Shown here: piece after piece, positions 1,581 to 12,770 of the stretch
Layout of the letters: each line of letters begins with the position of its first letter
Position numbering within the stretch: the first letter of the stretch is position 1
Source of the DNA: Pseudomonadota bacterium
GTDB lineage: Bacteria; Pseudomonadota; Gammaproteobacteria; Steroidobacterales; Steroidobacteraceae
Length of the DNA: 16,594 nucleotides
NCBI GenBank assembly: GCA_021850555.1
Contig: JAJZLX010000463.1
Coordinates: 1 to 16,594 of the forward strand
Direction of reading: 5' to 3'
Position numbers and translations under genes: made by a program
Notes under the pieces: model-generated
Told to the model about the DNA's origin: nothing
The model's database searches: none
Seen by the model: the letters and a program-made list of their open reading frames with translations, nothing else

Positions 1581-3002
<1,422 letters not shown>

Positions 3003-3027
3003 GGTGTGAATTCTCCGATGGGTTCAG

Positions 3028-3118
3028 TGAGCGCCGTATGAGGGATACGCGCGCGCCATCCGAGCCTGGCAGGCGGCGGCCTTCAGGGGCCGGCCGGCCT
3101 GTCGCAACGCTCCTCGGA
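3028..3118 (-). promoter_or_regulatory. SAH riboswitch (ahcY-leader type)
   Basis: Read on the minus strand, the leader contains the conserved blocks of the SAH riboswitch in order: GAGGAGCGTTGCGAC, CCAGGCTCGG and ACGGCGCTCAC. P1 forms from TCCGAG (3113-3118) and CTCGGA (3059-3064). P2 forms from CAGGC (3097-3101) and GCCTG (3070-3074), with an inner GC stem. The pseudoknot forms from GAGCG (3108-3112) and CGCTC (3029-3033). The variable linker carries an optional hairpin CGTAT-N5-ATACG (3035-3049). The aptamer ends about 12 nt before the ahcY GGAG. The class is known to raise ahcY expression when SAH accumulates, and that function is inferred here from the match. Confidence 0.9.
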
Positions 3119-3161
3119 GGACGCGGCTCCACCGCACAATCCGCGGCGAATGGCCGTGTCT

Positions 3162-3196
3162 GGCGCGGCGCAGCGGCAGATCCGCTGCGCCGCGCC
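3162..3196 (-). terminator. 15-bp perfect hairpin between metK and ahcY
   Basis: GGCGCGGCGCAGCGG (3162-3176) is exactly complementary to 3182-3196 around a 5-nt loop. No T-run follows on either strand. Lying after metK and before the SAH aptamer, it could terminate, attenuate or define the 3-prime end of the metK mRNA. It is annotated as terminator-like on position only. Confidence 0.5.
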
Positions 3197-3206
3197 GGCA
3201 AACCTC

Positions 3207-3230
3207 AGGCGGCCCGCGCCCGGGCCGCCT
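3207..3230 (-). terminator. 10-bp hairpin directly after metK
   Basis: AGGCGGCCCG (3207-3216) and CGGGCCGCCT (3221-3230) form a perfect 10-bp stem with a 4-nt loop, 6 nt past the metK stop codon. The following minus-strand sequence GAGGTTTGCC has only three Ts, so termination would be weak. It may act together with the larger hairpin at 3162-3196. Confidence 0.5.
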
Positions 3231-3236
3231 CGCCGA

Positions 3237-4409
3237 TCAGGCCGCTTTCAGGCACTTGGCGGCAGCCGCCAGCGCCTCGGCCCGGTCGGTCCGCTCCCAG
3301 GTGAACTCCGGCTCGGTACGGCCGAAATGCCCGTAGGCGGCGGTCTTCTGGTAGATCGGACGCGCCAGATCCAGCATGCGGCGCAGGCCATAGGGCGTGA
3401 GATCGAAGTGCTCGCGCACCAGCTGGGTCAGTTGCTCGCGCGAGAGGCGGCTGGTGCCGAAGGTCTCAACCATGACGGAGGTCGGCTCGGCCACGCCGAT
3501 CGCATAGGAAACCTGCACCTCGCAGCGCGAAGCCAGACCCGCGGCCACGATATTCTTGGCCACATAGCGCGCCGCATAGGCCGCAGACCGGTCCACCTTC
3601 GAGGGGTCCTTGCCCGAGAACGCGCCGCCGCCATGACGGGCATAGCCGCCGTAGGTGTCGACGATGATCTTGCGGCCGGTGAGACCGCAGTCCCCCACGG
3701 GCCCGCCGATGACGAATCGCCCGGTGGGGTTGATGTGGAAGCGGGTCTCCTTGCCGACCCACTCCTTGGGCAGCACGGGCTTGAGGATCTCCTCCATTAC
3801 CGCCTCGCGCAGCGTCTCGTTGGAGACCTCGGGACTGTGCTGGGTGGAGAGCACCACGGCCTCGAGCCCGACGGGCTTGTCGTCCTCGTAGCGCAATGTG
3901 ACCTGACTCTTGGCGTCGGGACGCAGCCAGGTGAGCCGCCCGGTCTTTCTCACCTCGGCCTGGCGCTTGACCAGCCGGTGCGCCAGAGTGATGGGCGCCG
4001 GCATCAGCACGTCGGTCTCGTTGCTGGCGTAGCCGAACATCATCCCCTGATCACCCGCGCCCTGCGAGCGCTCATCCTTGCGATCGACGCCCTGGGCGAT
4101 GTCCGCAGACTGCTTGCCGATGACGTTGAGCACCCCGCAGCTCGCCCCGTCGAAGCCCATGTCGGAGGAGTTGTAGCCGATGTCGAGGACGGTCTTGCGC
4201 ACCAGAGACTCGACGTCCACCCAGCCAGAGGTGGTCACCTCGCCGGCGACGATGACCACGCCCGTCTTGACCAGAGTCTCGCAAGCCACGCGCCCGCGGG
4301 GATCCTCGCCGAGGATCGCATCCAGCACCGCGTCCGAGATCTGGTCGGCGACCTTGTCGGGATGGCCTTCGGAGACGGATTCGGAGGTGAAAAGATAGTG
4401 ATTGGTCAT
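3237..4409 (-). CDS. metK: Methionine adenosyltransferase (SAM synthetase)
   Basis: Makes S-adenosylmethionine from methionine and ATP in the cytosol, supplying nearly all cellular methylation. The 390 residues fit the family length. Visible landmarks are GHPDK near the N-terminus (15-19), the signature [12 protein letters not shown] (117-128) and the phosphate-binding loop GGGAFSGKD (260-268). The start ATG overlaps the stop of the upstream PfkB kinase as ATGA, so the two are translationally coupled. Two hairpins follow the stop before the riboswitch-controlled ahcY. I found no SAM riboswitch upstream of the kinase or of metK itself. Confidence 0.97.
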
Positions 4410-5458
4410 CGATCGGTTCCCGTAGCTTGAGCGTGAGAGATTTCCCGGGAGCGCACCGCGCCGAACGCGGCCCGGGCCGCAGGCTCACCGAAGCTCTCGG
4501 CGAGCCGCCGCGCGATCTGCTCGCGCGTCGGGCGATGATTCTGAGTGCCGCGTGATTCTATCTTGATGGCGCCCATGACGGCCGCGATCCGGCCGGTGCT
4601 TTCCCAGTCGAGCCCGCGCAGCAGTCCATGCAGCAGGCCGGCGCGATAAGCATCGCCGCATCCCGTCGGATCCACCACGGCGGCCGCCTTGGCGCACGGG
4701 ATCTCGATCCGCCCTTCCCTGGTGTGGATGACCGAGCCGCTGGCGCCGCGAGTGACGATCAGCGCCGCCACGCGCTCGCACACCTGCCGCTCGCTCCAGC
4801 CGGTCTTCTGCTGCACGACCTGCCACTCATAGTCGTTCACCGCCACCCACTGCGCCTGGCCGATGAATGCGCGCAGCGCCTCGCCATCGAACATCGGCAG
4901 GCCCTGACCGGGATCGAAGATGAAGGGAATGCCGGCGGCGGCGAACTGGTGCGCGTGCTCGAGCATGCCTTCGCGCCCGTCGGGCGCCACGATTCCCAAA
5001 GCGATGTCCTTCGCATCCGCCACCTTGTTGAGATGCGCCTGCTGCATCGCTCCCGGATGGAAGGCCCAGATCTGATTGTCGTCCAGATCGGTGGTGGCGA
5101 AGCCCTGTGCCGTGAACTCCCCCTCGAGCACCCGCACGTGCTCGACCGGCACGCCGTTGCGCCGCATCCACTCGCCGTACGCGTCGAAGTCGTGGCCCAC
5201 TGTCGCCATGGGATAGCCCACGTCGCCCAGCAGGTTGAGGTTGTAGGCGATGTTTCCGGCACAGCCGCCGAATTCCCGGCGCATCTGCGGCACGAGAAAC
5301 GACACGTTCAGGATGTGGATCTTGTCCGGGAGGATGTGGTCCTTGAAGCGCCCCTGGAACACCATGATGGTGTCAAAGGCGACGGACCCGCAGATCAGTA
5401 TTTTGCCGGAAGTGTCGCTCGTGCGTGACACTCCCCCGGCCTCGAGATTCTGTGTCAT
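4406..5458 (-). CDS. PfkB-family kinase, probable adenosine kinase
   Basis: A 350-residue ribokinase-fold kinase. The N-terminal beta strand begins at about residue 19 ([12 protein letters not shown]). The glycine motif [17 protein letters not shown] lies at 62-78. The C-terminal PfkB signature [12 protein letters not shown] (263-274) holds the catalytic Asp269 and anion hole. The family covers sugars and nucleosides. Adenosine is inferred as substrate because the gene is coupled to metK (ATGA overlap) and sits two genes upstream of ahcY, whose adenosine product it would convert to AMP. A sugar kinase role cannot be excluded. The first 18 residues precede the fold and no Shine-Dalgarno is seen before the ATG at 5458, so the exact start is uncertain. 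Confidence 0.85.
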
Positions 5459-5474
5459 GCCATGTCAATTGCAA

Positions 5475-5508
5475 GGAGGAATTGGGGATATTAGCGCAAT
5501 TCCCCTCC
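5475..5508. promoter_or_regulatory. Bulged inverted repeat in the fdsD-kinase spacer
   Basis: On the plus strand GGAGGAATTG (5475-5484) pairs with CAATTCCCCTCC (5497-5508) through a 10-bp stem with a 2-nt bulge and a 12-nt loop. It lies between the last fds gene (ends 5561) and the kinase start (5458). It could be the fds operon terminator, an operator, or part of the kinase leader. On the minus strand the loop includes TAATAT, which resembles a -10 box but lacks a good -35 partner. Confidence 0.4.
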
Positions 5509-5560
5509 AAACTCCAGGGCGGCCTCCCCGCGCCGGAACCGCCGCGCGAAGATCATCGCC

Positions 5561-5800
5561 TCACGAGGGATGGGATGGTTTGGATTCCGCCGCGAGCAGC
5601 GCGACCGCCTGCCGGGCGAGATCGGTGAGGCCCTCGCCGTGATGTTCCTCACAATGGGCGATGATCTGGCGCCGCATGCGCGGCTCCCAGAAGCGCTTCA
5701 GATGCGTGGCAACGTCATTCGCAGCCTCCGTCGGCGCCGACTCGGACGCGAAGAACATGCTGATCTCGTTGGCCATCTTGACGAGCAGTTCGGTATTCAT
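5561..5800 (-). CDS. fdsD: NAD-dependent formate dehydrogenase delta subunit
   Basis: A 79-residue protein matching the small FdsD family. An amphipathic N-terminal region with LVKMANEISMFF is followed by the family hallmark VATHLKRFWEPRMRRQII (31-48) and a helical C-terminal part. FdsD accompanies soluble FdsGBA formate dehydrogenases and is needed for their full assembly or activity. It is not a redox subunit and carries no cofactor motif. It is the last gene of the fds operon, 30 bp after fdhD. No strong Shine-Dalgarno is visible, so it may depend on reinitiation after fdhD. Confidence 0.9.
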   Translation of the reverse strand: MNTELLVKMANEISMFFASESAPTEAANDVATHLKRFWEPRMRRQIIAHCEEHHGEGLTDLARQAVALLAAESKPSHPS

Positions 5801-5830
5801 TTGGGTTATCTGGTCATGACATGCAGTTGT

Positions 5831-6703
5831 TCAGACGCCGCTCAACCGTCCCGAGTGGGCATACACCACGTGCTGATGCTCCCGCGCGAACGCCACCAGC
5901 GTCATGCCGGCGCGCTCGGCGAGGCGCACCGCGAGGGCGGTCGGAGCCGAGAGGGCCGCAAGAAAGGCGATGCCCACCGCGGCGCTTTTCTGGATCATCT
6001 CGTAGCTCGCCCGGCTGGTGAGCAGCAGGAATCCGCCGGAGAAATCCGCCCCCGAGCGCACTCGCGCGCCGATCAGCTTGTCGAGCGCGTTGTGCCTGCC
6101 GACATCCTCGCGGACGACCTCGATCCCGCGGCCCGGAACAACCCACGCCGCCGCATGCACGCTGCCCGTGCGGGCGTTGAGGGGCTGGTGGCGCGCGAGC
6201 CCGGCGATGGCCGAGTGCAGATCGGCGGCCGTCACGACCGGCCCCTCCCCCACGGGCTTCACCGCTCGGATTGCCTGCTCGGCGCTCTCCACGCCGCAGA
6301 GGCCGCAGCCCGTGCGACCGGTGAGCCGCCGCCGCTGCTCGAGCAGCCCCGTGAACCGCTCCCAGGCAACGCTGATGCGGACCTCGGCGGTTTCGGCGCC
6401 ATGGATGACCTGCACGTCACGGATCTCCCGCGCATCCTCGACCAGTCCCTCACTCAGCGTGAACCCGACCCCGAAGTCCTCGAGATCGGCCGGAGTGGCA
6501 AGCATCACGCCGTGGGGCACGCCGTGGTAGAACAGCCCCACCGGCAGCTCCTCGGCCACCAGGTCGCGCTCGCGGCTGACCAGACCCTCCCGCCAGCGCT
6601 CGACGTCGAACTCGGCAACCACCTGAGGCGGCGCGCTCCTTGCGGCGGCCTGCAGCCGCGCTCGGGCGTGCTCCGGCTGCGGTGCTCCGCCCGATTCAGG
6701 CAT
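5831..6703 (-). CDS. fdhD: Formate dehydrogenase sulfurtransferase FdhD/FdsC
   Basis: Transfers sulfur from a cysteine desulfurase to the molybdenum cofactor before it enters the formate dehydrogenase; without it the enzyme is inactive. The 290-residue protein shows the family Cys pair CGLC (Cys133 and Cys136) in a flexible loop. It also has an ELPVGLFYHG-like N-terminal core, VVREDVGRHNALDKLIG and LLLTSRASYEMIQK further on. An open frame continues 24 codons upstream, but only with residues that shadow fdsA. The ATG at 6703 gives the usual length and overlaps the fdsA stop by 8 bp, implying coupled translation. In fdsGBACD operons this gene is called fdsC. Confidence 0.95.
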   Translation of the reverse strand: MPESGGAPQPEHARARLQAAARSAPPQVVAEFDVERWREGLVSRERDLVAEELPVGLFYHGVPHGVMLATPADLEDFGVGFTLSEGLVEDAREIRDVQVIHGAETAEVRISVAWERFTGLLEQRRRLTGRTGCGLCGVESAEQAIRAVKPVGEGPVVTAADLHSAIAGLARHQPLNARTGSVHAAAWVVPGRGIEVVREDVGRHNALDKLIGARVRSGADFSGGFLLLTSRASYEMIQKSAAVGIAFLAALSAPTALAVRLAERAGMTLVAFAREHQHVVYAHSGRLSGV

Positions 6704-9554
6704 GCGCAGGATCGCGCGCGCGGCCCGGGGTCTTGCGCAGCGAGCGCTCCACGGCCGCCCGCTCCCGCCAGGCATCCGCCTGGCTCACCCGCACCACCTG
6801 CACCGCCGTCACCTTGTACTCCGGGCAGTTGGTCGCCCAATCGGAGTTTTCCGTGGTGACGATATTGGCCTGGGTCTGGGGGAAGTGGAACGTGGTGTAG
6901 ACCACCCCGGGGGCGATTCGATCGCTGACACTGGCGCGCAGCACGGTCTCCCCCGCACGGCTGGACATTCCCACCCAATCGCCGTCGGCGATGCCGCGTA
7001 CCTCGGCATCGTGCGGATGAATTTCCAGCAGATCCTCCGCGTGCCAGAGCACGTTCGCCGTGCGGCGCGTCTGCGCGCCGACGTTGTACTGGGAAAGGAT
7101 CCGCCCGGTGGTGAGGATCAGCGGGAAGCGGCCGTTCACCCGCTCGCTGGTCGGAACGTACTCGGTGACATAGAAGCGGCCCTTGCCACGCACGAACTGA
7201 TGCACATGCATGGTCGGCGTGCCTTGCGGCGCGGCATCGTTGCACGGCCACTGGATGCTGCCCAGCCGATCGAGCTTCTCGTACGACACGCCCTCGAAGG
7301 TCGGGGTGAGGCGCGCGATCTCATCCATGATCTCGGACGGATGCGTGTAATGCATCGGATAGCCGAGCGCGTTCGAGAGCAACATGGTGACCTGCCAGTC
7401 CTCGTACCCGGCGCGCGGCGGCATCACCTTGCGCACGCGCGAGATGCGCCGCTCTGCGTTGGTGAACGTGCCATCCTTTTCCAGGAACGAGGAGCCGGGC
7501 AGGAACACGTGGGCGAATTTCGCGGTCTCGTTGAGGAACAGGTCCTGCACGATCACGCACTCCATCGCCGCCAGCGCGCTGGTGACATGATGGGTATTCG
7601 GATCGGACTGGACGATGTCCTCGCCCTGCACGTAGAGGGCGCGGAACGTGCCGTCGAGCGACGCCTCGAACATGTTCGGGATGCGCAGGCCCGGCTCGGC
7701 CGGGAGACTCACACCCCAGTCCCGCTCGAACAGCGCTCGCACCTCGGAATCCGACACGTGCCGGTAGCCGGTGAACTCGTGCGGGAACGAGCCCATGTCG
7801 CAGGAGCCCTGTACGTTGTTCTGGCCGCGCAGCGGGTTGACGCCGACGCCCTCGCGCCCAAGATTGCCCGTGGCCATCGCCAGATTCGCGAGCCCCATGA
7901 CGGCCGTCGAGCCCTGGCTGTGCTCGGTCACGCCGAGGCCGTAATAGATCGCGGCGTTGCCGCCGGTGGCGTACAGGCGAGCCGCGCGGCGCACCAGCTC
8001 GGCCGGCACGCCGGTGATCGCGGCCATCGCCTCCGGGGAATTGTGCGCCTCGGCAACGAAGGCCTTCCAGCGCTGATACGACGGGTCTTCGCACCGCTCC
8101 GCGACGAAATCATCCTTGGTCAGCCCTTCGGTCACCACCACGTGCGCCAGCGCGTTGAGCATGGCGACGTTGGTACCCGGCTGCAGCTGCAGGTGGACGT
8201 CGGCTGCAATGTGGGGGCTGCGCACGAGGCCGATGACGCGCGGGTCGATGACGATGAGCTTCGCGCCCTGGCGCAGCCTCTGCTTGATCTGCGAGGCGAA
8301 CACCGGATGGCCGTCCGTGGGGTTCGCGCCGATCACCAGGATCACGTCGGACTGGGCCACCGACGTGAACGCCTGAGTGCCGGCGGACTCCCCCAGGGTG
8401 CTCTTCAGGCCGTAGCCGGTGGGGGAATGGCATACGCGCGCGCAGGTGTCGACGTTGTTGGTGCCTAAGGCCGCGCGCACCAGCTTTTGCACGAGGAAGG
8501 TCTCCTCGTTGGAGCAGCGCGAGGAGGTGATGCCGCCGACCGAGTCGCGGCCGTATTTCGTCTGGATGCGGCGGATCTCTCCGGCCGCATACGCGATTGC
8601 CTCCTCCCAGGACACCTCGCGCCAGTCGTCGCGGATGCTCTTGCGCAGCATCGGCTTCAGCTGCCGGTCCGGATGAGTGGCGTACCCGTAGGCGAACCGT
8701 CCCTTGACGCAGGCGTGGCCATGGTTGGCGTCTCCATCGCGGTTGGGCACCATCCGCACCACTTCCGTCTCGGCGCCACTGCCGCGGGTCTCCGCCTCGA
8801 AGCTGCAGCCCACGCCGCAGTAGGCGCAGGTGGTGGTGACGGCGCGCTGCGGCTGGCCGAGCCGGATGAGCGATTTCTCGGTCAGCGCCGCGGTCGGACA
8901 GGCTTCCACGCACGCCCCGCACGAAACGCACTCTGACTCGAGGAACGGCTGGTCCTGGCTCGCCGCGATCTTCGATTCGAAACCGCGGCCCTGCACCGTG
9001 AGGGCGAAGGTGCCTTGAACCTCCTCGCAGGCGCGCACGCAGCGCGAGCAGACGATGCAGTACTGCGGATCAAACACAAAGTAGGGATTGCTCTCGTCGA
9101 CCGGCGAGGGGTGGCGCCGGCCCGGGCCGTAGGTCGTCTGGGCAAGGCCCACCGTCCTGGCGACGCTCTCGAGCTCGTTGTGCCCCTTCGCCGGGGAGTC
9201 GGCCCAATCAGGCGGCTGGTCCGAGAGATAAAGATCCAGAACGCCGCGGCGCAGCGCCTGGAGCTTCTCCGATTGAGTGCGGATCTTCATGCCCGGGGCG
9301 ACGAGGGTGGTGCACGAGGCGGGGTAGCCCCTGCGTCCCTCGATCTCGACCAGGCACATCCGGCACGAGCCGAAGGCCTTCAACGTATCGGTGGCGCAGA
9401 GCTTGGGCACCTGAGTCCCGGCGAGAGCCGCGGCCCGCATGACGGACGTGCCCTCGGGCACCGTCACGCTCTTGCCGTCGATCTCGACGGTGACGGGTGC
9501 GCCCCCGTCGCGGGGTGCCGGAGTGCCGCAATCATGATAATCAATGGCAAACAT
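6696..9554 (-). CDS. fdsA: NAD-dependent formate dehydrogenase catalytic alpha subunit
   Basis: Oxidises formate to CO2 at a bis-pterin Mo (or W) centre and passes electrons through Fe-S clusters to FdsB/FdsG and NAD. The 952 residues match FdsA length. In order: an N-terminal [2Fe-2S] ferredoxin domain (Cys53, 64, 67, 81); a degenerate His-Cys region (113-126); two [4Fe-4S] motifs (Cys166, 169, 172, 176 and Cys209, 212, 215, 219); the Mo-proximal cluster (Cys243, 246, 250, 282); and the catalytic loop CARVCHSPTG, with Cys375 as metal ligand (not selenocysteine) and His376. The His-Cys3 cluster found in typical FdsA/NuoG is absent: positions read Gln113, Trp117, Ser120 and Asn126. AAGAGG 8 nt before the ATG supports the start. 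It follows fdsB after a structured 111-bp spacer. Confidence 0.97.
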   Translation of the reverse strand: MFAIDYHDCGTPAPRDGGAPVTVEIDGKSVTVPEGTSVMRAAALAGTQVPKLCATDTLKAFGSCRMCLVEIEGRRGYPASCTTLVAPGMKIRTQSEKLQALRRGVLDLYLSDQPPDWADSPAKGHNELESVARTVGLAQTTYGPGRRHPSPVDESNPYFVFDPQYCIVCSRCVRACEEVQGTFALTVQGRGFESKIAASQDQPFLESECVSCGACVEACPTAALTEKSLIRLGQPQRAVTTTCAYCGVGCSFEAETRGSGAETEVVRMVPNRDGDANHGHACVKGRFAYGYATHPDRQLKPMLRKSIRDDWREVSWEEAIAYAAGEIRRIQTKYGRDSVGGITSSRCSNEETFLVQKLVRAALGTNNVDTCARVCHSPTGYGLKSTLGESAGTQAFTSVAQSDVILVIGANPTDGHPVFASQIKQRLRQGAKLIVIDPRVIGLVRSPHIAADVHLQLQPGTNVAMLNALAHVVVTEGLTKDDFVAERCEDPSYQRWKAFVAEAHNSPEAMAAITGVPAELVRRAARLYATGGNAAIYYGLGVTEHSQGSTAVMGLANLAMATGNLGREGVGVNPLRGQNNVQGSCDMGSFPHEFTGYRHVSDSEVRALFERDWGVSLPAEPGLRIPNMFEASLDGTFRALYVQGEDIVQSDPNTHHVTSALAAMECVIVQDLFLNETAKFAHVFLPGSSFLEKDGTFTNAERRISRVRKVMPPRAGYEDWQVTMLLSNALGYPMHYTHPSEIMDEIARLTPTFEGVSYEKLDRLGSIQWPCNDAAPQGTPTMHVHQFVRGKGRFYVTEYVPTSERVNGRFPLILTTGRILSQYNVGAQTRRTANVLWHAEDLLEIHPHDAEVRGIADGDWVGMSSRAGETVLRASVSDRIAPGVVYTTFHFPQTQANIVTTENSDWATNCPEYKVTAVQVVRVSQADAWRERAAVERSLRKTPGRARDPAHA

Positions 9555-9592
9555 ATCTATCGCCTCTTGTCATGCGCTGAGCGCAGGACCTA

Positions 9593-9623
9593 CGGGGCTC
9601 GCTCCGGGAGGGAGCGGACCCCG
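9593..9623 (-). other. Intra-operon hairpin in the fdsB-fdsA spacer
   Basis: CGGGG (9593-9597) plus CGCTCC (9600-9605) pair with GGAGCG (9611-9616) plus CCCCG (9619-9623), a near-perfect 13-bp stem with a 5-nt loop. It is flanked by smaller stems at 9573-9585 (TGCGC-TGA-GCGCA) and 9635-9649 (CGGCGC-TAC-GCGCCG). It may be an mRNA-stabilising or processing structure that sets the fdsGB to fdsA ratio. No T-run follows. Confidence 0.55.
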
Positions 9624-9657
9624 TCTGAACACAGCGGCGCTACGCGCCGGAAGGATC
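9610..9657 (+). repeat. Dispersed repeat, copy 2 (fdsB-fdsA spacer)
   Basis: Second copy of the element at 165-219, in the same orientation, with the 19-bp core at 9634-9652. The two ends GGGAGCGG and GGATC are also shared. It sits between two genes that are usually close together in fds operons, which explains the extra spacer length. Confidence 0.6.
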
Positions 9658-9665
9658 ACCCGTTG

Positions 9666-11258
9666 TCAACGCGATACCCTTGCGAGGAAGTCTTCGCGGA
9701 AATGCTTCAGCGCGCTCTGTACGGGAAACGGGGCCATGCCGCCGAGACCGCACAGCGACCCCTGCACCATCACCTCGCACAACTCCTCGAGCCGCACCAC
9801 CTGGCGCTGCGGATCCTCGCCCTCGAGGATGCGATCGACGATCTCCACCCCGCGCGTCGAGCCGATCCGGCAGGGCGTGCACTTGCCGCAGGACTCTATC
9901 GCGCAGAACTCCATGGCGTAGCGGGCCATCTGCACCATGTCCACGGTGTCATCGAACGCCACGATACCGCCGTGGCCGAGCATGGCGCCGATGCCGGCGA
10001 GCGCCTCGTAATCGACCAGGGTGTCGAACTGCGAAGCCGGCACGTAGGCGCCGAGCGGTCCGCCGATCTGCACCGCGCGGATGGGGCGGCCGGAGGCGGA
10101 GCCGCCTCCGTACTCGTACAGAAGCTCGCGCAGCGTCAGGCCGAACGCCCGCTCCACCAGCCCGCCGCGTTTGATGTTGCCGGCGAGCTGGATCGGCAGC
10201 GTGCCACGCGACTTGCCCGTGCCGTAGCCGGCGTAGAATTCCGCCCCATGGCGCAGGATGGCCGGCACCGTCGACAGCGTGATGACGTTGTTGACGATCG
10301 TCGGGCACCCGAACAATCCCTTCACGGCAGGCAGGGGCGGCCGCACGCGCACCTCGCCCCGCCGGCCCTCCAGGCTCTCCAGCATCGAGGTCTCTTCCCC
10401 GCAGATGTACGCTCCGGCGCCCAGACGCACCTCCAGGTCGAAGCGCTTGCCGCTGCCCATGACATCCGCGCCCAGGTAGCGGGCTTCGTATGCGCCCGCG
10501 ATGGCCCGGGTGAGTATCCGATGGGCATGCGGGTACTCGGCGCGCAGGTAGATGTAGCCCCGGGTCGCGCCCGTGGCGATTGCCGCGATGGTCATGCCCT
10601 CGATCAGGCTGAACGGGTCGCCTTCCATCAGCATGCGGTCGGAGAAGGTGCCGGAATCTCCCTCATCGGCGTTGCAGGTGACATATTTCTGGCCGGCCTG
10701 CTGATCGAGCACGGTCTTCCACTTGATGCCGGTCGGAAAGGCCGCCCCGCCGCGCCCACGCAGTCCCGAGCCGGTCACCGCCTCGACGACGGCCTGCGGA
10801 CTCATCGCAAGCGCCCGCCGCAGACCCTGATAGCCCCCGTGGGCCACGTAGTCCGCCACGCTGAGCGGATCGACACGCCCGACCCGCTCGAAGGTCAACC
10901 GCTGCTGACTCGCAAACCAGGGAACGGTTTCGACATCGCCCACGCGCAGCGCATGCGCGCCGCCCCGGAGCCAGCCGGCATCGAACAGCCCGGGCACGTC
11001 CGCCGCGCTCACCGGACCGTAGGCGATCCGCCCCTGCGCGCCCACCACTTCCACCAGTGGCTCGAGCCAGTAGGCCCCGCGGGAGCCGTTGCGCACCAGG
11101 CGCACATCGAGTCCTCTGCTCGAGGCCTGTGCCGCGATCGCGCGGCAGACGGCCTCGGCTCCGAGCGAGAGCGACCCGGCGTCTCCGGGCACAAACACCG
11201 TCGTGACGGACGCCGCTGCGTCGGGCCCGCCGGGGCGGGCCGTCTTGGGAGAGGTCAT
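9666..11258 (-). CDS. fdsB: NAD-dependent formate dehydrogenase beta subunit (NuoF-like)
   Basis: Diaphorase subunit that takes electrons from FdsA and reduces NAD at FMN. The 530-residue protein has an N-terminal thioredoxin-like region (about 15-115) with a single Cys and hence no cluster of its own. The NuoF core follows: GRGGAAFPTGIKW (168-180) for NADH/FMN, GAGAYICGEETSMLESLEG (280-298), and a C-terminal [4Fe-4S] site with ESCGKCTPC (Cys457, 460, 463) and Cys503. The frame is open for 80 codons upstream, but those codons overlap fdsG. The ATG at 11258 overlaps the fdsG stop as ATGA and gives the family length. Its downstream neighbour fdsA is 111 bp away. Confidence 0.96.
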   Translation of the reverse strand: MTSPKTARPGGPDAAASVTTVFVPGDAGSLSLGAEAVCRAIAAQASSRGLDVRLVRNGSRGAYWLEPLVEVVGAQGRIAYGPVSAADVPGLFDAGWLRGGAHALRVGDVETVPWFASQQRLTFERVGRVDPLSVADYVAHGGYQGLRRALAMSPQAVVEAVTGSGLRGRGGAAFPTGIKWKTVLDQQAGQKYVTCNADEGDSGTFSDRMLMEGDPFSLIEGMTIAAIATGATRGYIYLRAEYPHAHRILTRAIAGAYEARYLGADVMGSGKRFDLEVRLGAGAYICGEETSMLESLEGRRGEVRVRPPLPAVKGLFGCPTIVNNVITLSTVPAILRHGAEFYAGYGTGKSRGTLPIQLAGNIKRGGLVERAFGLTLRELLYEYGGGSASGRPIRAVQIGGPLGAYVPASQFDTLVDYEALAGIGAMLGHGGIVAFDDTVDMVQMARYAMEFCAIESCGKCTPCRIGSTRGVEIVDRILEGEDPQRQVVRLEELCEVMVQGSLCGLGGMAPFPVQSALKHFREDFLARVSR

Positions 11259-11734
11259 GGGCTTTCCTCGGTATCCGCCTCGGCAAGCAGCGCATCGAAG
11301 CGTTCCGGGGTGACACGGCCGTGCAACTGCCCGTCGATCATCACCGCCGGAGAGCAGGCGCAATTGCCCAGGCAGTACACCGGATCGAGCGAGAACTTCC
11401 CGTCCGAGGTGCGCTGGTGGAAATCGACTCCCAACCGCGCGCGCGCGTGCTCTGCCAGCGCCTCGCCCCCGACGGCCTGGCAGGACTCGGCGCGGCACAC
11501 CTGCACGACGTGCTTGCCCGGGGGGGAGCTGCGGAAGTGATGGTAGAAGGTGACGACGCCATGGACCTCGGCGCGGGAGAGATTGAGCTCCTCGGCCACC
11601 AAGGCGACGGTTTCGGCCGGCACGTGGCCCAGCGCTTCCTGGATCGCGTGCAGCACCTCGAGGAGCGGTCCTGGACGATCTTTGAATTCCGTCAGGATCC
11701 GCCGGACGGTCTCACTTTGTGCCGAGGAGAGCAT
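11255..11734 (-). CDS. fdsG: NAD-dependent formate dehydrogenase gamma subunit (NuoE-like)
   Basis: First gene of the fds operon, encoding the thioredoxin-fold [2Fe-2S] subunit that pairs with FdsB. An N-terminal helical bundle (GPLLEVLHAIQEALGHVP, VHGVVTFYHHF) precedes the cluster motif C-x4-C (VCRAESC) and C-x3-C (CLGNC), the standard NuoE pattern. An ATG two codons upstream (11740) is in frame, but GGAG (11742-11745) lies 1 nt from it and 7 nt from the ATG at 11734, so the later start is preferred (159 residues). The stop overlaps the fdsB start as ATGA. The S-formylglutathione hydrolase gene lies 175 bp upstream on the same strand. Confidence 0.95.
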   Translation of the reverse strand: MLSSAQSETVRRILTEFKDRPGPLLEVLHAIQEALGHVPAETVALVAEELNLSRAEVHGVVTFYHHFRSSPPGKHVVQVCRAESCQAVGGEALAEHARARLGVDFHQRTSDGKFSLDPVYCLGNCACSPAVMIDGQLHGRVTPERFDALLAEADTEESP

Positions 11735-11782
11735 CTGCATACTCCAGAAAGTATACGTCCTGCCGGCCGCCGGCTTGAACGA

Positions 11783-11825
11783 TCGGCGGTCGGAGGTCGG
11801 AAAATCTAAGATTGTGTTCGATTTT
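11783..11825. promoter_or_regulatory. Repeat-rich candidate control region upstream of fdsG
   Basis: Three tandem 7-mers TCGGCGG, TCGGAGG and TCGGAAA (11783-11803) adjoin an inverted repeat AAAATC (11801-11806) / GATTTT (11820-11825) with a 13-nt gap, which contains the short palindrome AATCTAAGATT (11803-11813). The AT-rich patch stands out from the GC-rich surroundings 50-90 nt upstream of fdsG. LysR-type regulators control some fds operons and bind dyads of this kind; the assignment is inference only. Confidence 0.35.
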
Positions 11826-11909
11826 TGGCACGTGCAGGCAGCGCGGCGCGGCGGCGCCTGAAGCCGGGCGGAAGCCGGCCGCCGCTCGCCTCGCGGCTGC
11901 AGCCTCTGC

Positions 11910-12770
11910 TCAGCCCTTCAGCAGCCCCGCGTGATGGCGCAGGTGCTCCTCGATGAAGCTCGAGATGCAGTAGTAGCCGTGGTCGTAACCCTCATGGCGG
12001 CGCAGCGTGAGCCTGAGCCCCGACTTGCGGCACGCCTCCTCCAAGAGATGCGGATGCAATTGGTCCTTGAGGAACTGGTCGGCAAGTCCCTGATCCACCA
12101 GAATCGGCGGCCGGCTGGCCGCATCGGTCACCGCGGCGGCAAGCTCGGTGGCATCGTAGGCGGCCCACTGGCCTTGATCGGGCCCCAGATAGCCGCTGAA
12201 GGCCTTGCGGCCCCAGGGACACTGGCGCGGCGCCGAGATCGGCGCAAACGCCGACACCGAGCGATATCTGTCGGGGTTTCGCAGCGCGATCACGAGCGCG
12301 CCATGCCCGCCCATGGAGTGCCCCAGGATGCCCGTACGATCCGGATCCGCCGGGAAATGCGCCTCGATGAGCGCACGCAATTCCCGCGTGACGTAGGTAT
12401 ACATGCGGTAGTGGCGCGACCAGGGCATCTCCGTGGCATCGACGTAGAAGCCGGCGGCCACGCCGAAATCCCACGAATCGCTCTCTCCGGGCAGATTCAC
12501 CCCGCGGGGACTGGTGTCGGGCATGACGAGCATCAAGCCCAGCTCGGCCGCCACGCGCTGCGCGCCGGCCTTGATCGTGAAGGTCTCCTCGGTGCAGGTG
12601 AGGCCGGCGAGGCAATACAGCACGGGCGCGCGAGCGCTCGAGAGGCGCGGTGGCGTGAACACCGCGAACCGCATGGCACAGGCGGTGCTCTCGGCCTGGT
12701 GCCGGTAGAAGCCCACTGTGCCGCCGAAGCAGCGGTGCTGACTGATGACCTCGAAGGGCTGGGCGGCCAT
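11910..12770 (-). CDS. fghA: S-formylglutathione hydrolase
   Basis: Hydrolyses S-formylglutathione to formate and glutathione, the second step of glutathione-dependent formaldehyde detoxification. The 286-residue cytosolic alpha/beta-hydrolase of the esterase D family shows the nucleophile motif GHSMGGHGA (Ser152), Asp231 in DQGLADQFL and His264 in EGYDHGYY. These are the expected catalytic triad, with LAGLTCTEETF near 54-64 forming the oxyanion region. GAGG 7 nt before the ATG supports the start. Its product formate is the substrate of the fds enzyme encoded immediately downstream. The partner glutathione-dependent formaldehyde dehydrogenase is not in the window. Confidence 0.96.
   Translation of the reverse strand: MAAQPFEVISQHRCFGGTVGFYRHQAESTACAMRFAVFTPPRLSSARAPVLYCLAGLTCTEETFTIKAGAQRVAAELGLMLVMPDTSPRGVNLPGESDSWDFGVAAGFYVDATEMPWSRHYRMYTYVTRELRALIEAHFPADPDRTGILGHSMGGHGALVIALRNPDRYRSVSAFAPISAPRQCPWGRKAFSGYLGPDQGQWAAYDATELAAAVTDAASRPPILVDQGLADQFLKDQLHPHLLEEACRKSGLRLTLRRHEGYDHGYYCISSFIEEHLRHHAGLLKG

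What the first reader, a model, noticed from the sequence alone, without database searches (positions are those of the whole stretch)
9177..9218. FdsA has lost all four ligands of the His-Cys3 iron-sulfur cluster
Typical FdsA and NuoG carry H-x3-C-x2-C-x5-C between the [2Fe-2S] domain and the double-cluster domain. Here the frame is intact and the flanking residues (LYLSD before, GHNELE after) are kept, but the ligands read Gln113, Trp117, Ser120 and Asn126. The other FdsA clusters keep every Cys. This suggests a clean loss of one cluster rather than decay, which would alter the electron path or show that this cluster is dispensable.
Basis: partly seen in the sequence, partly recalled or inferred. 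Interest (0 to 1): 0.7.

Follow-up and report, generated by a model that had tools for sequence, protein, structure and literature searches.

The report
Formate dehydrogenase missing one iron-sulfur cluster
This bacterial formate dehydrogenase has lost the amino acids that hold one of its iron-sulfur clusters, a cluster that in a solved relative sits beside the main electron path where two copies of the enzyme touch, and related enzymes have lost the same site repeatedly, which suggests that the cluster can be spared.

Summary
FdsA (6696-9554, minus) reads Gln113, Trp117, Ser120, Asn126 where cluster A4 needs His-Cys-Cys-Cys, and no Cys lies between C81 and C166. The gene is otherwise sound: 17 motif Cys are invariant in 70 aligned rows, omega against L001-L004 is 0.11-0.16, and fdsG-B-A-C-D is complete. 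It is neither an error nor unique: 73 of the 120 best homologues (own row included) and 115 of 255 representatives lack the full motif (a sample biased to losers). N-terminal trees need 11-13 changes, but only 5 independent pairs lie on well-supported branches. In R. capsulatus FDH, A4 lies off the bis-MGD-to-FMN path at the dimer interface, and a monomer was reported as active as the dimer. So the main path should be intact and only a possible link between protomers is gone. M. extorquens FDH1 is a distant solved precedent. New here: repeated loss inside canonical FdsA, non-ligand positions that differ with it, and signs that the cluster-less N-terminal stretch moved between FdsA genes.

The parts
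6696..9554 (-). fdsA, 952 aa, catalytic subunit of NAD-dependent Mo formate dehydrogenase, without the cluster A4 ligands
   Evidence: TIGR01591 918.7 bits, cut-off 666.25; 6tg9_A 1399 bits; PF10588 not listed at E<=0.001
9177..9218 (-). former His-Cys3 site of cluster A4: Q113, W117, S120, N126
9666..11498 (-). fdsB (longest open frame 610 aa from GTG; the true start may lie inside), FMN and 4Fe-4S diaphorase subunit
   Evidence: PF01512, PF10589
11255..11740 (-). fdsG, 161 aa, 2Fe-2S subunit
   Evidence: PF01257; NF004638 247 bits, cut-off 198
5831..6775 (-). fdsC/fdhD, sulfurtransferase for the Mo cofactor
   Evidence: PF02634; TIGR00129 211 bits, cut-off 140.9
5561..5800 (-). fdsD, 79 aa, small subunit, with F16 F17
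   Evidence: PF11390 84.6 bits, cut-off 27

Best explanation
This is an NAD-dependent molybdenum formate dehydrogenase (FdsABGCD type) whose FdsA no longer binds the His-Cys3 cluster A4. Shown: ligands gone, no substitute Cys, the other cluster motifs kept, gene under purifying selection, same loss in its clade and in other FdsA lineages. Inferred: formate electrons still run bis-MGD, A1, A2, A3, A5, B6, FMN, NAD; A4, a side cluster at the FdsA-FdsA interface, is gone, so two enzyme halves can no longer exchange electrons through A3-A4-A4'-A3', and the enzyme works as single FdsABG(D) units or as a dimer without that link. After loss of the cluster the site drifted step by step and was partly repacked (W, M, A at 117, F or Y at 113, or a four-residue deletion). 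The N-terminal stretch with the lost site has in at least one case moved between FdsA genes by recombination.
For: Ligands Q/W/S/N, codons read directly; 17 motif Cys invariant in 70 of 70 rows, 70 being my choice out of 360 proteins. Omega 0.157, 0.123, 0.118, 0.114 against L001-L004. Off the main path and at the interface in RcFDH (section read). A monomer as active as the dimer, and one cluster, likely A4, never reduced in EPR, as told in a review from the group that made the enzyme (passages; the thesis behind the monomer was not seen). MeFDH1, a heterodimer, lacks this cluster. NuoG-like proteins of 8 genomes whose FdsA lacks the motif all keep H-x3-C-x2-C-x5-C (8 of 8 fetched; in the other two of ten genomes, G003 and G008, one search listed none that I took for NuoG). 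Leu115 (RcFDH Leu119, at the interface) is L in 140 of 140 representatives with the motif and 45 of 115 without. P0110 (YRST) is 95-99% identical to motif-bearing P0089 over 401-940 but 40% over 99-146, where it is 92% identical to L015.
Against: No protein was studied; quaternary structure is unknown. The cryo-EM paper saw a density difference at A4 on NADH reduction and calls it likely redox active, contrary to the EPR remark. FdsD and Trp906 (RcFDH Trp917) are kept, so that side looks normal. L115 lies inside the motif, so its change may be plain loop drift and not loss of the dimer. The tree-based test of linked changes has 5 well-supported pairs and cannot reach p 0.05. Whether the window clade and the deletion clade share one loss is open (support 40, 72/54). 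The QWTC and L016 cases of recombination are not seen on every N-terminal tree.
Confidence: 0.82

Rival explanations
1. A different cluster (for example 2Fe-2S or 3Fe-4S) or another metal is held by residual or neighbouring residues, so the site is remodelled and not lost.
For: Some relatives keep one or more ligands (of 440 rows: H--C 36, QWSC 5, HARC 1, HAAC 1); L032 keeps H and two Cys.
Against: The window has no Cys in residues 82-165; in the deletion group the remaining Cys126 is Thr in 26 of 62 rows, which fits drift.
Confidence: 0.05
2. The gene is decaying and the loss is a symptom of a failing enzyme.
For: All four ligands are gone; dN in the 40-codon A4 stretch exceeds the gene average in 5 of 6 comparisons within the window clade (for example 0.064 against 0.034 with L001; the exception is L003 against L004, 0.011 against 0.021).
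Against: Whole-gene omega 0.08-0.16 in those six comparisons, one open frame, complete operon, other motif Cys kept; the same loss in other lineages with open frames of full length.
Confidence: 0.03
3. Not exclusive of the best explanation: loss of A4 is positively selected. Removing an off-path cluster reduces electron leak to oxygen, saves iron or frees the enzyme from dimerisation, and recombination spreads the cluster-less stretch.
For: 11-13 changes on N-terminal trees; Trp at 117 in 37 of 440 rows of several lineages; a mosaic N-terminus that carries the lost site.
Against: Relaxed constraint plus drift explains repeated loss equally well; Cys to Trp is a one-base change; no link with habitat or oxygen was tested; Acidiphilium multivorum P0123 keeps HCCC beside relatives without it.
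Confidence: 0.25
4. Assembly or sequencing error in these codons.
For: None found.
Against: Related proteins and loci of other assemblies share the loss; the frame is intact.
Confidence: 0.01

Closest known systems
Rhodobacter capsulatus FdsABGD (PDB 6TG9/6TGA)
   Same: Same subunits and domain order; 64% identity to 6tg9_A (65% to R. aestuarii 9ktl_A) in the Foldseek alignment; other cluster motifs aligned
   Different: RcFDH has A4 held by H117, C121, C124, C130 at the dimer interface; the window has none of the four
Methylorubrum extorquens FDH1 (MeFDH1, PDB 7E5Z/7XQW, 7VW6/8J83)
   Same: Lacks the interface cluster and also reads Q at the His position with no Cys at the other three
   Different: Distant (595 bits against 1399 for RcFDH), tungsten enzyme with one beta subunit like FdsB plus FdsG and no FdsD; by this distance I take its loss as a separate event
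NuoG/Nqo3 of complex I
   Same: Shared N-terminal cluster domain with a His-Cys3 site
   Different: NuoG-like proteins of 8 of 8 genomes fetched keep the motif; that this cluster (N5) lies on the complex I path is recalled, no call
BfuA subunits of bifurcating enzymes
   Same: Single clusters of the related domain are reported missing in some members, e.g. A4 Cys in the 'Tsib' Nfn-Bfu (passages of PMC9304861)
   Different: Other partner domains; their cluster numbers were not matched to RcFDH numbers here

Membership tests
FdsA, NAD-dependent Mo formate dehydrogenase alpha subunit | Formate dehydrogenase alpha model over cut-off | tested here: met
   TIGR01591 918.7 bits, cut-off 666.25
FdsA, NAD-dependent Mo formate dehydrogenase alpha subunit | Mo-ligand Cys (RcFDH Cys386) | tested here: met
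   C375 in the alignment; invariant in 70 of 70
FdsA, NAD-dependent Mo formate dehydrogenase alpha subunit | Cys motifs for A1, A2, A3 and the 2Fe-2S cluster A5 | tested here: met
   C53 C64 C67 C81; C166 C169 C172 C176 C209 C212 C215 C219; C243 C246 C250 C282 invariant in 70 of 70; assignment to clusters is by motif, recalled
FdsA, NAD-dependent Mo formate dehydrogenase alpha subunit | His-Cys3 site of A4 (typical, but not universal by this survey) | tested here: not met
   Q113 W117 S120 N126; full motif in 140 of 255 representatives
FdsA, NAD-dependent Mo formate dehydrogenase alpha subunit | Operon with fdsB, fdsG, fdsC, fdsD | tested here: met
FdsA, NAD-dependent Mo formate dehydrogenase alpha subunit | Formate:NAD activity | not testable with these tools
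   no protein
MeFDH1-type W formate dehydrogenase | Closer to MeFDH1 than to RcFDH; one beta subunit in place of FdsB and FdsG | tested here: not met
   595 against 1399 bits; separate fdsB and fdsG frames

The most novel reading that the evidence does not exclude
The cluster-less N-terminal stretch is a favoured, exchangeable form of FdsA: loss of the off-path interface cluster is selected (for example to stop electron leak or to free the enzyme from dimerisation), arises repeatedly with matching changes at positions such as 110 and 222, and spreads between FdsA genes by recombination.
Probability: 0.2. Interest if true: 0.65.

Novelty: new variant of a known kind. Interest (0 to 1): 0.45.

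Why it matters
The structure paper left the function of A4 to future studies. Nature supplies close FdsA enzymes with and without the site, for example P0110 and P0089, 90% identical over 952 columns. They make the question of electron transfer between formate dehydrogenase protomers directly testable, and they may offer simpler enzymes with one cluster less for CO2 reduction work.

Tried and rejected
Habitat: I thought of acid-adapted hosts because some lineages without the motif bear names of acidophiles, but five Acidiphilium and Acidocella rows that I checked keep HCCC (P0123, P0136, P0150, P0174, P0187), so I dropped it; no habitat data were used. PF10588 as a proxy for the motif: rejected, P0044, P0049 and P0116 carry PF10588 yet lack both middle Cys; all counts are of the residues. 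Loss tied to loss of FdsD: not supported, FdsD matches in 14 of 17 loci without the motif and 55 of 63 with it, many loci being cut short. A second FdsA as backup: of 10 genomes searched, nine have one match of 70% identity or more and G009 has one plus a contig-end piece; the genomes are mostly incomplete drafts. The paired-tree test of linked changes at 110, 115, 128, 131, 222 and 223, with 57 as a column chosen for control, was under-powered: 5 pairs, b going the same way in 4.8 (110), 4.0 (115), 3.7 (222), 3.0 (223), 2.2 (131), 1.4 (128) and 0.1 (57) of them. The AlphaFold model (mean pLDDT 70.9, shallow alignment; blocks of 69-76 over residues 111-140) is too rough to show how the site is packed. 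Papers: seven searches ran (listings of 10, 49 and 50 were cut at 15 of 21, 10 of 15 and 10 of 24); by titles and abstract starts none is about A4 loss in FdsA. PMC8808070, PMC12571268 and PMC13397495 were seen as passages only and added nothing on A4. Subscription papers are not held.

Full report
What is there. The window's minus strand carries a complete formate dehydrogenase operon: fdsG (11255-11740), fdsB (9666-11498), fdsA (6696-9554), fdsC/fdhD (5831-6775) and fdsD (5561-5800). They align with H117, C121, C124 and C130 of R. capsulatus FdsA, the A4 ligands in the cryo-EM paper PMC7171172 (sections 6, 8, 9 and 10 read). The window protein has no Cys between 81 and 166, so no substitute Cys ligand lies nearby.

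Is the gene sound? Yes. In an alignment of 70 rows (the window and 69 of the 360 proteins found) the 17 Cys of the other motifs, the Mo ligand included, are invariant. Whole-gene omega of the window against L001-L004 is 0.157, 0.123, 0.118 and 0.114. The 40-codon A4 stretch evolves faster in these four (dN 0.064, 0.077, 0.107, 0.109 against 0.034, 0.039, 0.071, 0.070 for the whole gene) but not freely: L003 against L004 gives 0.011 (all).

How common is it? Of the 120 best homologues, the window's own row included, 47 keep H-C-C-C and 73 do not. Of 80 genome loci (the best 80 of a capped list), 63 keep it and 17 do not. Of 440 rows from three protein searches and the genome scan, 233 keep it and 207 do not. 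Of 255 representatives 140 keep it and 115 do not. Record titles of loci without the motif name Steroidobacteraceae, Steroidobacter gossypii, Peristeroidobacter agariperforans, Acetobacteraceae, Acidiphilium, Xanthobacteraceae and Candidatus Acidiferrales, besides unplaced proteobacterial MAGs.

How often was it lost? The whole-gene tree needs 18 changes and, rooted at the midpoint, shows 27 motif-less clades. Trees of the N-terminal part without the motif (columns 1-98 and 147-232) need 11 changes, 13 when 215-228 are also dropped, and 13 on a careful tree of 85 rows, with 11 to 14 over 300 of 1000 bootstrap trees. Only 5 independent pairs lie on well-supported branches, so 'about five at least, perhaps a dozen' is the safe wording. 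L032, with H and two Cys left, is a borderline case counted as loss.

Order of loss near the window. On the whole-gene tree the window clade (QWSN, QWSS, QWSC, LWSS) is sister to a clade with the full motif; a further clade has lost four residues including both middle Cys, with Cys126 turned to Thr in part of it. Intermediates such as QWSC suggest that C117 and C120 went before C126. Whether the window clade and the deletion clade share one loss is not settled (support 40, 72/54).

Recombination. N- and C-terminal trees disagree. P0012 and P0013 (QWTC) join the window clade in the N-terminal tree (support 87) and the deletion clade in the C-terminal one (99). The three YRST/YRTT rows form one N-terminal clade there (94) and are scattered in the C-terminal tree. 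C-terminal data reject YR* as one clade (p-AU 0.0016) and QW/LW as one clade (0.029); these groups were named after the first trees were seen, so the p-values flatter. Against this, on the N-terminal trees L016 (YRTT) stands apart from the YRST pair, and P0012 stands apart from the window row. The firmest case is P0110: 91-99% identical to motif-bearing P0089 over 233-940, 40% over 99-146, and 92-93% identical to L015 over 99-232.

Linked changes. Position 110 is I or V in 138 of 140 motif-bearing representatives and L or A in 113 of 115 others; 222 is A in 129 of 140 and in 13 of 115; 115, the interface Leu119 of RcFDH, is L in 140 of 140 and in 45 of 115. Among 516 columns at least 90% conserved in motif-bearing rows, 222 has the third-highest share of departures in the others, after two ligand columns. 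The window itself has L110 and P115 but still A222. These raw counts do not correct for kinship, and the paired-tree test was under-powered. Repacking of an emptied site is the natural reading; without coordinates it is inference.

What A4 does. In RcFDH the direct chain is A1, A2, A3, A5, B6; A4 is outside it, at the dimer interface, and could connect the protomers. The same paper saw a density difference at A4 on reduction and calls it likely redox active. A review (PMC10385643, passages) recalls that one cluster, likely A4, was never reduced in EPR, and that a monomer was as active as the dimer. MeFDH1 is a heterodimer without this cluster, and its authors infer that it is not needed there (PMC10869683, sections 7 and 8 read; they number it A5). 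The window's loss is best read as loss of a side cluster with the main path intact. NuoG-like proteins of 8 of 8 genomes fetched keep their motif.

Structure. An AlphaFold model (pLDDT 70.9) matches R. aestuarii and R. capsulatus FDH best (TM 0.86 each) and then MeFDH1 7vw6 (0.82). It confirms the fold only.

Verdict. Real and biologically meaningful, with a known distant precedent; the repeated loss and the mosaic N-terminus within canonical FdsA are the new part.

Noticed in passing
window 1581-12770, minus strand: fghA, the fds operon, a PfkB-type kinase, metK and ahcY lie in one row; matches to all of them flank fdsA in L001, L003, L004, L005 and L037, and all but ahcY in L002, which ends there. 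It looks like a C1-oxidation and SAM-cycle neighbourhood.
   Followed up: partly
L077: FdsA of an Acidiphilium MAG has no FdsB, FdsG, FdsC or FdsD match in the 12.7 kb held; its genome G009 holds a second FdsA piece at a contig end.
   Followed up: partly
P0341, P0343, P0342: Two motif-bearing rows sit inside a cluster-less group and one cluster-less row sits beside a motif-bearing one on the whole-gene tree, as N-terminal exchange would give.
   Followed up: partly
L068 and P0205: The former A4 loop carries extra residues, in L068 with two Cys at unusual spacing; possibly another kind of site.
   Followed up: no
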